Shown piece after piece: positions 36,951-47,661 of a DNA stretch of 64,000 bases. The DNA is taken from contig JAGYVD010000007.1 in NCBI GenBank assembly GCA_021209875.1, positions 2,232,001 through 2,296,000 of the forward strand, in the 5' to 3' direction. A program made the position numbers and the translations under genes. Under the pieces are notes generated by a model that worked only from the letters and a program-made list of their open reading frames with translations, was not told the DNA's origin and did not search any database. Position 1 is the first letter of the stretch. Each line of letters starts with the position of its first letter. The stretch comes from Rosellinia necatrix. Taxonomy: Eukaryota > Ascomycota > Sordariomycetes > Xylariales > Xylariaceae.

Positions 36951-39900
36951 ATGGCTATTATATCATCCTTCGTGCCTGGCGACGCTGGGAAGCATCGTGA
37001 TAGCCTTTACGAGCAGGCAACCTGCCGCTTCGGCTTGGGTCGGGATAAAATCGAGAACATTCTCCCATGTACGCCCTTCCAGCGCGATGTAATAGACTGT
37101 GCTGCCGATGACAGGCGGCGTGCTGTCGGCCATGTCGTTTATGAAATCCCGAGCAACATCGACCCCGAACGCTTGGCTGGAGCTTGGAAGGAGGTTGTAC
37201 GTCATACTCCGGCTTTGCGGACGTGTACATTTACCTCCAAATCCGGGGATTCCTTCCAGGTCGTATTGGGAGAGAGCTTCTTCGTGTGGATGTATTCGAC
37301 GTCCATCGACATGAAGGAGGAGGTGCTTCAAGATGAGACATGTGCTGCCGTGTCTGGACCCCGTTGCAATCGATACGTCATCCTCGAAGACCCAAGCACA
37401 AAGCAGAGACAGCTCATCTGGACCTTCAACCATGCGCTGGTGGATAGCGCTCTACAAGAACGCATCCTTCGACGGGTTCTCACGGCCTATGACGGCGGGG
37501 GAATCCAAAACCCCAGCGAAACCGAGTCGCCGGCAAGCCTTAGCTTTAGAGACATCGAGGGCGCAGCTCAGTTTTGGCAACAGCACTTTAGCGGCTTGAA
37601 TGCCTCCGTATATCCCCCCTTACCATCCCACATGGCCGTGCCCCAACCCAACGCGCAGTCAAAACACCGTATTTCATATTCAGTTCCAGTTTCGGCCCAG
37701 CAGCAGTGGACCGACACAGCCATCTGCCGAGCAGCGCTTGCAGTGCTGCTGGCTCGGTTTACGCACGCTTCGGAGGCGCTCTTTGGTGTTGTGACGGAGC
37801 GACCTGACACAATAGAGCAGGATGGCCCGGCACGAACAGTGGTGCCTATGCGCGTGCTTTGTGCCCCCGATCAATCCGTATCGGATATTATACAAGCGGT
37901 CACTACCCACGATAATGCAATGCGCGAGTTTGAACAGGTCGGCCTCCGCAACATCCGCCACGCTGGAGACGACGGGTCCGCCGCTTGTGGTTTCCAAACC
38001 GTGCTACTGGTCACGGCTGGTGACGTCGCAGAGTCGCCGAGTTCTGGGCTCCATCGGAATGTTGAAGAATTGGATAGATTTGTGCCATGCACTGATCGTG
38101 CCCTTCTCCTCAGCTGCAGGATGGCCGATGGCTCGGCATTACTGACCGCACGATATGATCAGGGCGCCATTGACAGCCCCCAGATGGGTCGCTTCCTGAG
38201 GCAGTTGGGAGGCTTGATCCAACGATTTCAGAGCCGTGCGGTCGATCTGCCTTTGGGGCAACTGGACATCATTACGAAGGAGGACTGGGCGGAGCTCGAG
38301 AGTTGGAATTCGGAACAGCTGCAGGCCAACGAGACCTGCATCCACGATGTGATAGCCAAGAGGGCTGCTGATGCGCCAAGAAAACCCGCAGTGCTCTCCT
38401 GGGATGGGGAATGGACGTACGCCGAGCTGGATAGTGTCGCCTCGCGCCTTGCCGGACATATCCAATCACTCGACTCGGGCAGGGGGCCGGCGATATTTCC
38501 ACTCTGTTTCGAGAAGTCGAAATGGTTCGTCGCCGGAATGCTCGCGGTGCTCAAAGCCGGCCGGGCATTCACACTCATCGACCCGGCCAACCCACCGGCC
38601 AGGATCGCCCAGGTCTGCCGGCAGACCGCCGCCACAGTCGCTCTCACCTCCGCACTCCACTGCGATATGATGTGCGCCGTTGTAGGTCGCTGCATTGTGC
38701 TCGATGATGACTTTCTCCAGTCCCTTCCCTATGATGAAGGTCGGTTCCAATCCACCGCGACACCGCAAGACTTGGCCTACGTTCTTTTCACTTCCGGCAG
38801 CACAGGGGAGCCGAAAGGTAGCATGATTGAGCATCGGGGATTTGCGTCGTGTGCTCTCAAATTCGGCCCTGCACTAGGGATCGATAACCAGACGCGCGCC
38901 CTCCAGTTCGCCTCCTACGCATTCGGTGCGTGTCTGCTCGAAATCGTGACGGCTTTGATGCATGGCGGGTGCGTCTGCATTCCTTCCGACGATGATCGCA
39001 TGAACAATGTCCCAGACTTCATCAGGAGGCGTGAAGTAAACTGGGCCCTCCTCACTCCTTCGTTTATCGGGACGATTCAACCTGAAAGTGTCCCTGGATT
39101 GCAAACATTGGTGTTGGTCGGAGAGCCGATGTCAGCGTTGATGAGAGAGACCTGGGCTCCGCGGGTTCGGCTCTTAAACGGATACGGTCAGGGCGAGAGC
39201 TCGACGATCTGTAGTGTTACCAATGTCAACTCACTGTCTCTTGAACCGAACAATATTGGCCAGGCTGTAGGCGCCCGTTTCTGGGTCCTCGACCCCAATG
39301 AGCCCAACCGCCTTGCTCCGATCGGTGGCATTGGCGAGCTGTTAATTGAAAGCCCAGGGATTGCACGCGGATACATCGTTACTCCGCCGCAGGAAGATTC
39401 GCCATTCCTCGCAGCGGCCCCGGCTTGGTATCCTGTCGAGCGGCTGCCCGATGGTGTCAAATTCTACAGGACTGGAGATATCGTGCGGTACAGATCCGAT
39501 GGTACTGTTGTCTACCTTGGGCGCAGAGATTCGCAGGTCAAGATCCGAGGGCAGCGTGTCGAGACCAGCGAAGTAGAAGCTTGCCTACGACAGCAATCGT
39601 CAAGCGACATCACGCCCGTGGTCGAAGCTGTCAAACGCCCGAATTTCCCCAACCGAACAGCCTTGGTTGCCTTCCTAGTAGGGCCTTCTAAGATGGAGGA
39701 AGATCGCGTTGCTCACATCTTAGATCACAGTATCGCCAAAGGTATAAACGCGAAGCTACAACAGCTTCTTCCTCAGCATTCCATTCCGTCTTACTATATC
39801 CGTATGAAGGATCTTATTTACACTGCGACTGGGAAAACAGACCGGAAAGGACTTCGATCTCTCGCCAGCAAGCTATTAGGCGAATTGGTTCAGAATGGCA

Positions 39901-40170
39901 CACCCCAGCCAAGCGAGAAGCTCGAATCATTAGCTACTAGCACAGAAGCCAAATTGAGGGAGATTTGGTTTCGAGGTTTAAATGTCGATCCCAACTCTAA
40001 CAACAGCCGGGCGAGCTTCTTTGAACTGGGCGGAGACTCAATTGCGGCGATCAAAATGGTAAACATGGCGAGGTTAGCCGGGATCGCGTTGACAGTAACC
40101 GATGTATTCCAGAATCCCTTGCTCCCTGGTCTGATAGACGTAGTCGGGCGAGGCTCATCCCAGTACAGTA
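36951..40170 (+). other. synthetase module 1: C1-A1-T1
   Basis: C1 (about residues 35-450) has a degenerate HxxxD motif, NHALVDS, as in enniatin-type enzymes where the first condensation domain has an atypical role. A1 (about 460-970) has A3 FTSGSTGEPKG, A5 NGYGQGESS, A7 FYRTGDIVRY and A10 TGKTDRKGLR. Its pocket stretch YAFGACLLE (656-664) has Gly where amino-acid-activating domains carry the Asp that binds the alpha-amino group, the feature expected for a domain activating an alpha-hydroxy acid such as D-hydroxyisovalerate. T1 (about 985-1055) carries the phosphopantetheine Ser1030 in LGGDSIAA. Confidence 0.88.
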
Positions 40171-47047: not shown

Positions 47048-47661
47048 ACTAGAAGCAACCCTAACAACGCCAAACGAGATCAAGGAAGTACAGTTGCAAA
47101 AGCTAATCGCCAATGCTGTAATCAACCCCCCTAACTGCTATATTCCGGTGCAAGAACGGGCAGCTGTTCAGCGAGCCGCCGAGGCTCGCCTTGATACGAA
47201 CTCTCCTGGGAGAGTCTGGGGAAATAGTGAGGGCGATCCTGCCTCAAGCGTCTATAAAGACTGAAAATTCACCGTTCACCGACGAGAAGCTACTGGCGTC
47301 AGTTCTCAGAGTTGCCGAGATAACGGCAGAATGCACCAGCTCAATGCTTCAGGACATCCAAACAGAGCGAAGAACCGAGATCGACCACATCAACGGCTAT
47401 CTTTCCCTGCATGGCCAGCGACTAGGCCTCCCCTATGCCAACAATGACATACTTATAAGCATGGTGAAACAGCGCCAAACCATTGCCAACGAAGACATAC
47501 AGTCCGCATTTCATATGCCAAGTGTCGGAGCCATTGATCTGGAGGAAGCGTTGGAGATTGGGAGCACTAGCGGAATAGTGACAAGTAAATGTGAAGGAGG
47601 GAAAAAGGAAAATGTAACTACAGCTGTTGTGGAGGTTGTCAGCGAGTTGACCAGCGCCTAA
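46413..47661 (+). pseudogene. C-terminal ketopantoate-reductase-family (KIVR-like) domain, interrupted by two frame changes
   Basis: This is the reductase part attached to the synthetase. The N-terminal Rossmann half is in frame with C3: RIHILGVGNLGKFIAHAL, LPITLIFHRDD, LIVATKTY, ILFLQNGMG, then, across the 46756-46808 intron, DEVSATVFKDPETRPSY and FSIVHAGQG. At the G6 run 46961-46966 conservation moves to another frame (PESASTIPEV, VQLQKLIANAVINP). At the C6 run 47126-47131 it moves again (FRCKNGQLF, IRTLLGESGEIVRAI, SSMLQDIQTERRTEID, INGYLSL) and ends at TAA 47659-47661. ApbA/PanE landmarks are in correct order across all three frames, so this is one domain with two lesions, not separate genes. 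The family includes 2-ketoisovalerate reductase, which makes D-hydroxyisovalerate for beauvericin and enniatin; ketopantoate reductase is the alternative. Confidence 0.82.

What the first reader, a model, noticed from the sequence alone, without database searches (positions are those of the whole stretch)
36951..47661. Cyclodepsipeptide synthetase joined in one reading frame to its own hydroxy-acid-forming reductase
Seen: the C1-A1-T1-C2-A2-MT-T2a-T2b-C3 frame continues past C3 through about 40 residues of linker, without stop or intron, into ILGVGNLGK and other marks of the ketopantoate reductase family. Established: enniatin, beauvericin and bassianolide synthetases use D-2-hydroxyisovalerate made by 2-ketoisovalerate reductase, a member of that family encoded by a separate gene, often clustered with the synthetase. 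Inference: this is a natural fusion delivering the hydroxy acid directly to module 1. I know of no described example, but I cannot search.
Basis: partly seen in the sequence, partly recalled or inferred. Interest (0 to 1): 0.92.

Follow-up and report, generated by a model that had tools for sequence, protein, structure and literature searches.

The report
Depsipeptide synthetase fused to broken reductase
A fungal-type enzyme that builds ring-shaped peptide-like compounds is joined to the reductase that would make one of its building blocks; such a terminal reductase had already been noted in a Xylaria fungus, and in this sequence the catalytic half of the reductase is out of frame.

Summary
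One frame (36951-46805, 3285 aa) runs through C1-A1-T1-C2-A2-MT-T2a-T2b-C3 and, after a 40-residue linker, into the NADPH-binding half of a ketopantoate/2-ketoisovalerate-type reductase (ApbA). The catalytic half (ApbA_C) does not follow in that frame. A good GT-AG intron (46756-46808) moves the frame once; it then changes twice more, near 46.95-47.02 kb and 47.11-47.14 kb. The only introns found that could absorb both changes have background-level sites or remove conserved residues. As assembled, the reductase is most likely broken, by natural decay or assembly error.

The fusion is not new in kind. Zhang et al. [quoted passage not shown] bassianolide synthetase' (ABR28366), 30% identical to a Fusarium 2-ketoisovalerate reductase. 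Most likely this is another Xylaria-type bassianolide/enniatin-class synthetase whose fused reductase originally made the hydroxy acid for module 1. A stand-alone reductase (L003) could supply it instead. The protein database was switched off, so relatives could not be compared; delivery in cis is untested.

The parts
36951..46805 (+). Open reading frame, 3285 aa: cyclodepsipeptide-type NRPS plus the N-terminal half of an ApbA/PanE-type reductase
37062..37970 (+). C1 condensation domain (NHALVDS)
   Evidence: Pfam Condensation in own-genome search converted to window coordinates; motif
38388..39860 (+). A1 adenylation domain (borders of the stretch searched); conserved Asp replaced by Gly (FGACLLE), as expected for an alpha-hydroxy acid substrate
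   Evidence: alignment to LgrA A domain
39960..40160 (+). T1 carrier domain (LGGDSIAA, motif at 40026; borders approximate)
40209..41495 (+). C2 condensation domain (HHIISDG)
41586..42647 (+). A2 adenylation domain core (FDATTWE, Asp retained: amino acid)
43164..43439 (+). N-methyltransferase core inserted in A2 (LEIGTGTG; Methyltransf_12, below its cut-off)
44430..44640 (+). T2a carrier domain (LGGHSLMA motif at 44508; borders approximate)
44727..44909 (+). T2b carrier domain (LGGHSLLA)
45063..46301 (+). C3 terminal condensation domain (SHSLYDG); best solved relative by sequence TqaA
46302..46421 (+). 40-residue open linker between C3 and the reductase (in-frame ATG at 46323)
46422..46784 (+). 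ApbA (PanE N-terminal, NADPH-binding) domain: GVGNLG, VATK, LQNGMG
46756..46808 (+). probable 53-nt GT-AG intron (GTAAGA ... CTGAC ... TTTAG); contains the TAG that ends the long ORF
   Evidence: 7 points; only 1 of 30 windows inside the NRPS frame reaches 7; frames agree
46808..47044 (+). reductase piece in frame 2: end of ApbA domain (E 0.00068, below cut-off), then a frame change at about 46.95-47.02 kb
46968..47261 (+). open stretch in frame 0 holding the Lys/Asn segment (QKLIANAVINP); the homologous part ends at a second frame change at about 47.11-47.14 kb
   Evidence: no Pfam hit alone
47122..47658 (+). reductase piece in frame 1: ApbA_C with TSSM and TEID motifs, stop at 47659-47661

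Best explanation
This is a fungal-type cyclooligomer depsipeptide synthetase of the enniatin/bassianolide class with a terminal reductase, as already noted for the Xylaria sp. bassianolide synthetase. Module 1 activates a 2-hydroxy acid, module 2 activates and N-methylates an amino acid, and the twin T domains and C3 build and cyclise the oligomer (mechanism carried over from the known family). The C-terminal ApbA-type domain descends from a 2-keto acid reductase. Its original role was most likely NADPH-dependent reduction of 2-ketoisovalerate, or a similar keto acid, to the hydroxy acid that A1 loads. Shown: domains, frame continuity into the reductase, the Asp-to-Gly change in A1, catalytic residues present across the pieces, two frame changes in the catalytic half without a good intron. 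Inferred: substrate, product, origin of the fusion. As assembled, the reductase would be truncated and inactive, so the hydroxy acid would have to come from a stand-alone reductase such as L003, or the two frame changes are assembly errors.
For: ORF and domains; ApbA and ApbA_C matches; A1 lacks the Asp; C3 is closest to TqaA among solved structures by sequence; published terminal reductase in the Xylaria bassianolide synthetase similar to KivRFp (PMC3478992 passages); frame changes seen by codon bias and paralogue alignment; linker open, with only weak splice sites in it; no other accessory cluster gene recognised in the 5.4 kb upstream (longest open stretch 106 aa, no Pfam hit in the eight scanned).
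Against: No relative could be aligned: the protein database was off and the Xylaria paper is not held. So membership in the Xylaria type rests on architecture only, and that its reductase follows the last C domain is recalled, not read. An open linker alone has a 4-7% chance. The reductase is not intact here. There is no transcript or product evidence. The fused domain lacks the extra length between Lys and Ser that KivRFp has (108 residues there, about 80 here by hand count across the pieces; and paper).
Confidence: 0.72

Rival explanations
1. The two frame changes are assembly errors, and the living strain has an intact fused synthetase-reductase.
For: The six catalytic residues compared sit in order in the pieces; the codon bias follows each true frame; no other lesion was noticed in the reductase; both changes fall in short intervals that include a mononucleotide run.
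Against: Long NRPS frames of the same assembly stay open over 63,759 bases containing 13 G/C runs of six or more. That set was chosen for being open, so it is biased. Two errors within about 200 bases would be unusual.
Confidence: 0.45
2. The reductase half is a genuine, recent pseudo-domain: the synthetase still works and the hydroxy acid comes from a stand-alone reductase such as L003, whose catalytic spacing (26/103/4/109/12) is close to that of KivRFp (26/101/4/108/12).
For: Frame changes; an intact stand-alone paralogue exists with KivRFp-like spacing (KivRFp residue numbers from PMC3478992); the synthetase frame itself is intact.
Against: Preserved codon bias and catalytic residues mean decay could only be recent; the function of L003 is unknown and it lies on another contig.
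Confidence: 0.38
3. The frame changes are removed by splicing, giving a full-length fused protein with an odd reductase. Candidates: one intron at 47029-47171, or a pair such as 46955-47006 plus 47118-47163.
For: These GT-AG pairs have the lengths needed (7, 2 and 5 points).
Against: 47029-47171 removes the Lys (47100) and Asn (47112) codons. 46955-47006 has poor sites (2 points) and 47118-47163 removes about 15 residues that L003 keeps (NPLTAVLRCKNGE). Scores of 5 or more are background: 24 of 30 windows inside the NRPS frame reach 5. Frame 2-to-1 introns that end before the Lys-Asn segment leave frame-1 stops at 47104 and 47119.
Confidence: 0.1
4. Two separate genes: the reductase starts at its own ATG (46323) and the open linker is chance.
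For: An in-frame ATG exists at 46323; chance openness 4-7%; known KIVRs are separate genes, e.g. adjacent to bbBeas (PMC10512319 passage).
Against: The synthetase would have no stop of its own; splice sites in the linker are weak; a terminal reductase on the Xylaria synthetase is published.
Confidence: 0.1
5. The terminal domain is a product-release (thioester) reductase.
For: A review states that a C-terminal R domain reductively releases the depsipeptide, citing nostocyclopeptide synthetase (PMC6271018, section 5 read; its reference 15).
Against: Pfam gives ApbA and ApbA_C and no thioester-reductase family at E 0.01; a terminal C domain of the fungal type already precedes it.
Confidence: 0.03

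Closest known systems
Xylaria sp. BCC1067 bassianolide synthetase (ABR28366; Jirakkakul et al. 2008, seen only as a citation; not held)
   Same: Cyclodepsipeptide synthetase with a terminal reductase domain similar to KivRFp (as stated in PMC3478992).
   Different: Sequence not available here, so identity, linker and intron positions are untested; the window's copy has the reductase out of frame in its second half.
Enniatin, beauvericin and bassianolide synthetases (ESYN1, BEAS, BSLS)
   Same: Domain order C1-A1-T1-C2-A2-MT-T2a-T2b, then a terminal C domain (PMC6271018 section 5); A1 of hydroxy-acid type.
   Different: They end after C3 (recalled); their reductase is a separate gene (kivr adjacent to bbBeas, PMC10512319 passage; KivRFp clustered with FpBEAS, PMC3478992 passage).
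2-ketoisovalerate reductase KivRFp (Fusarium proliferatum)
   Same: Same superfamily; GxGxxG; equivalents of Lys158, Asn184, Lys285, Asn289, Ser393, Glu405 found in order across the window's pieces (by motif).
   Different: KivRFp is a free 452-aa protein; the fused domain is shorter between Lys and Ser and is out of frame here.
Cereulide synthetase (and valinomycin type)
   Same: The hydroxy acid is made by a reductase inside the synthetase (PMC4455996 abstract).
   Different: An embedded ketoreductase reduces keto acids that the synthetase itself selects; no ApbA domain (recalled).

Membership tests
Fungal cyclooligomer depsipeptide synthetase | C-A-T-C-A-MT-T-T-C domain order in one chain | tested here: met
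   (MT by motif and sub-threshold Pfam match)
Fungal cyclooligomer depsipeptide synthetase | A1 lacks the Asp that binds the amino group | tested here: met
   FGACLLE against FDGSALD of LgrA
Fungal cyclooligomer depsipeptide synthetase | makes a cyclic hydroxy acid/N-methyl amino acid oligomer | not testable with these tools
   no chemistry
Ketopantoate/2-ketoisovalerate reductase superfamily | ApbA with GxGxxG and ApbA_C with Lys, Asn, Ser, Glu | tested here: met
   as separate pieces:
Ketopantoate/2-ketoisovalerate reductase superfamily | both halves readable as one protein (introns allowed) | tested here: not met
   two frame changes after the intron; the introns that could absorb them are weak or cut conserved residues
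2-ketoisovalerate reductase (KIVR) proper | reduces 2-ketoisovalerate; clusters with KIVRs in a tree | not testable with these tools
   protein database off; no assay
2-ketoisovalerate reductase (KIVR) proper | catalytic spacing as in KivRFp (Lys-Ser 108) | tested here: not met
   about 80 by hand count across the pieces; paralogue L003 has 109
Xylaria-type synthetase with terminal reductase | reductase of KIVR superfamily C-terminal to C3 in the same frame | tested here: met
   N-terminal half of the reductase only; the position in Xylaria is recalled
Xylaria-type synthetase with terminal reductase | sequence similarity to ABR28366 | not tested
   sequence not at hand (paper not held)
NRPS thioester reductase (R/TD domain) | NAD_binding_4-type reductase after a T domain | tested here: not met
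   no such hit at E 0.01; the domain follows C3

The most novel reading that the evidence does not exclude
In the living strain the fused reductase is intact and works in cis, making the hydroxy acid on the same polypeptide that loads it, so that supply of the hydroxy acid is built into the synthetase. The published Xylaria terminal reductase was called functionally uncharacterized, so this would be the first evidence of in-line hydroxy-acid supply by an ApbA-type domain.
Probability: 0.25. Interest if true: 0.5.

Novelty: new member of a known kind. Interest (0 to 1): 0.3.

Why it matters
A fused precursor-making enzyme would tie one hydroxy-acid supply to each synthetase, and would help to understand how these synthetases evolve. 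If the domain is decaying, the locus is a natural case of a fusion being lost while a free reductase may take over. The published precedent in Xylaria limits the surprise.

Tried and rejected
A scan of genome contigs (bacteria and archaea) with the 153-aa reductase piece gave 41 pattern matches, none confirmed. Own-genome search found no second copy of the fused domain: 3 matches in all, namely itself, C2:2026885 at 37% and C10:15359 at 22%. Family searches of that genome list 8 ApbA matches, 7 ApbA_C matches and 54 Condensation matches, 3 of them in this gene; the tool calls such counts of large families lower bounds. I considered and rejected: thioester-release reductase (family mismatch); an intron in the linker that would separate two genes (weak sites); introns that absorb the frame changes. 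On re-check my first wording, that no intron keeps the Lys-Asn motif, was too strong: 47118-47163 does, at the cost of about 15 conserved residues. For that I lowered natural decay from 0.40 to 0.38 and raised splicing from 0.07 to 0.10. The sequencing-error control used open frames only: the window's frame plus one from each of five fetched stretches or stretch pairs; a sixth (L028) gave no frame of 1500 aa or more and was dropped. It settles nothing alone. One scripted spacing (fused K to N, printed as 25) used a wrong offset; by the motif positions in the same output (Lys 3240, Asn 3266) it is 26. My note said 'no Pfam-supported accessory gene' before those stretches had been scanned; eight were then scanned without a hit. 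Literature: Jirakkakul 2008 and PMC7056724 are not held. In their listings and in the parts that I opened of 13 papers I saw no other ApbA/KIVR domain fused to a fungal depsipeptide synthetase; I did not read those papers whole.

Full report
What was checked. The ORF that starts at ATG 36951 is open to 46805 (3285 aa) and stops at a TAG at 46806-46808. Pfam finds Condensation (3 stretches), AMP-binding (2), PP-binding (3), methyltransferase matches below their cut-offs, and ApbA at residues 3158-3278 with E 1.6e-15. Motif positions give C1 (NHALVDS), A1, T1, C2 (HHIISDG), A2, MT (LEIGTGTG), T2a, T2b and C3 (SHSLYDG) in that order. This is the enniatin/beauvericin/bassianolide order (PMC6271018, section 5 read). 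A1 has FGACLLE where the LgrA adenylation domain has FDGSALD; loss of that Asp is expected for a hydroxy acid (recalled knowledge of A-domain codes). A2 keeps the Asp. C3 finds TqaA as its best solved relative by sequence; that TqaA's terminal C domain cyclises its product is recalled.

Frame continuity. The C3 match ends at 46301 (converted from genome coordinates) and ApbA begins at 46422. The 40 codons between have no stop. In parts of the window that I took as gene-poor, 1474 of 12270 stretches of 120 nt are open, and 996 of 5000 shuffles of the linker are; with one frame in three, chance gives about 4 to 7%. The best GT-AG pairs in the linker score 4, without a branch-like site (best 8 of 102 shown). 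An ATG at 46323 could in principle start a separate reductase, but the synthetase would then have no stop.

The second half of the reductase. The long frame ends inside ApbA. A typical fungal intron, 46756-46808 (53 nt, GTAAGA, CTGAC, TTTAG; 7 points; 1 of 30 windows inside the synthetase frame reaches 7), carries the reading into frame 2. There the end of ApbA is recognised (46808-47044, E 0.00068, below the curated cut-off). The next conserved part, with QKLIANAVINP, lies in frame 0, and ApbA_C (E 1.2e-23) lies in frame 1 at 47122-47658. Codon bias trained on the synthetase follows the same path, frame 0, 2, 0, 1, though weakly in the frame-2 part. Four separately translated pieces match consecutive parts of the stand-alone paralogue L003: residues 143-273, 292-332, 344-380 and 380-534 (E 1e-18, 3e-4, 2e-4, 4e-13 against that one sequence). 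Hence there are two frame changes after the intron, at about 46.95-47.02 kb and 47.11-47.14 kb.

Could splicing absorb them? Between the two homologous blocks at the first change only one GT-AG pair fits, 46955-47006, with poor sites (2 points). At the second change, 47118-47163 (5 points) fits and keeps Lys and Asn, but removes about 15 residues that L003 keeps. One intron at 47029-47171 (7 points) would reconnect the frames and removes the Lys (47100) and Asn (47112) codons. Single introns that end before that segment leave frame-1 stops at 47104 and 47119. Since 24 of 30 windows inside the synthetase frame hold a pair scoring 5 or more, such pairs carry little weight.

Is the break real? 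Against error: 13 G/C runs of six or more lie in 63,759 bases of open NRPS frames of this assembly, counted in the window's frame and one frame from each of five other fetched stretches (a sixth, L028, gave no long frame and was dropped). These frames were chosen for being open, so the control is biased. For error: residues equivalent to Lys158, Asn184, Lys285, Asn289, Ser393 and Glu405 of KivRFp (numbers from PMC3478992 passages) are present in order, and I noticed no other lesion. I leave both possibilities nearly equal.

Other reductases. The genome (49.1 Mb, 12 contigs, unnamed) shows 8 ApbA matches and 7 ApbA_C matches, this gene included. The closest to the fused domain is L003 (37% over 119 residues; 34% of 135 columns), a 544-aa ORF with catalytic spacing 26/103/4/109/12, near KivRFp's 26/101/4/108/12. 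None of the 54 Condensation matches listed lies near it; the nearest on that contig is at 4.83 Mb against 2.03 Mb. Recognised neighbours of the synthetase look like housekeeping genes. At 31.5-36.9 kb the longest open stretch is 106 aa, and eight stretches of 79 aa or more gave no Pfam hit.

What is known. Zhang et al. 2012 (PMC3478992; [quoted passage not shown] bassianolide synthetase (ABR28366, 30% identity/48% similarity)'. The original paper (Jirakkakul et al. 2008) appears in the reference lists of several papers that I opened but is not held. Thus the kind of fusion was on record by 2012. In other systems kivr is a separate gene adjacent to bbBeas (PMC10512319 passage). Cereulide synthetase (PMC4455996 abstract) makes hydroxy acids with embedded ketoreductase domains, a functional analogue with another domain.

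Limits. The protein database was off and the prokaryote contig scan gave nothing. So no relative of the fused region outside this genome could be aligned in full, the species is unknown (a fungus by inference), and membership in the Xylaria type rests on architecture. What remains unknown is whether the fused reductase works at all and hands its product to A1 in cis; nothing here tests that.

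Noticed in passing
L003 (G000 C2:2025400-2028921), ORF 1054-2688: Stand-alone ApbA/ApbA_C reductase with a long N-terminal extension and KivRFp-like catalytic spacing; 37% identical to the fused domain; candidate free 2-ketoisovalerate or ketopantoate reductase.
   Followed up: partly
L008 (G000 C10:13838-17239), ORF 748-2454 minus: A divergent ApbA-family protein (568-aa ORF) within 20 kb of a contig end; by eye its nucleotide-binding motif is altered.
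   Followed up: no
window 48236-50029: Phosphomannose isomerase type I gene directly downstream in two open stretches (Pfam catalytic domain split between them), with a GT microsatellite at 48614-48669, probably in its intron.
   Followed up: partly
window 27229-31476: Class-V aminotransferase gene (27229-28623 minus, cysteine-desulfurase-like by eye) and BAR-SH3 gene (30124-31476) upstream: the synthetase sits among housekeeping-type genes, not in an evident larger cluster.
   Followed up: partly
G000 C2:5576823-5588996: Another NRPS in one 5048-aa open frame with four condensation matches listed; product unknown.
   Followed up: no
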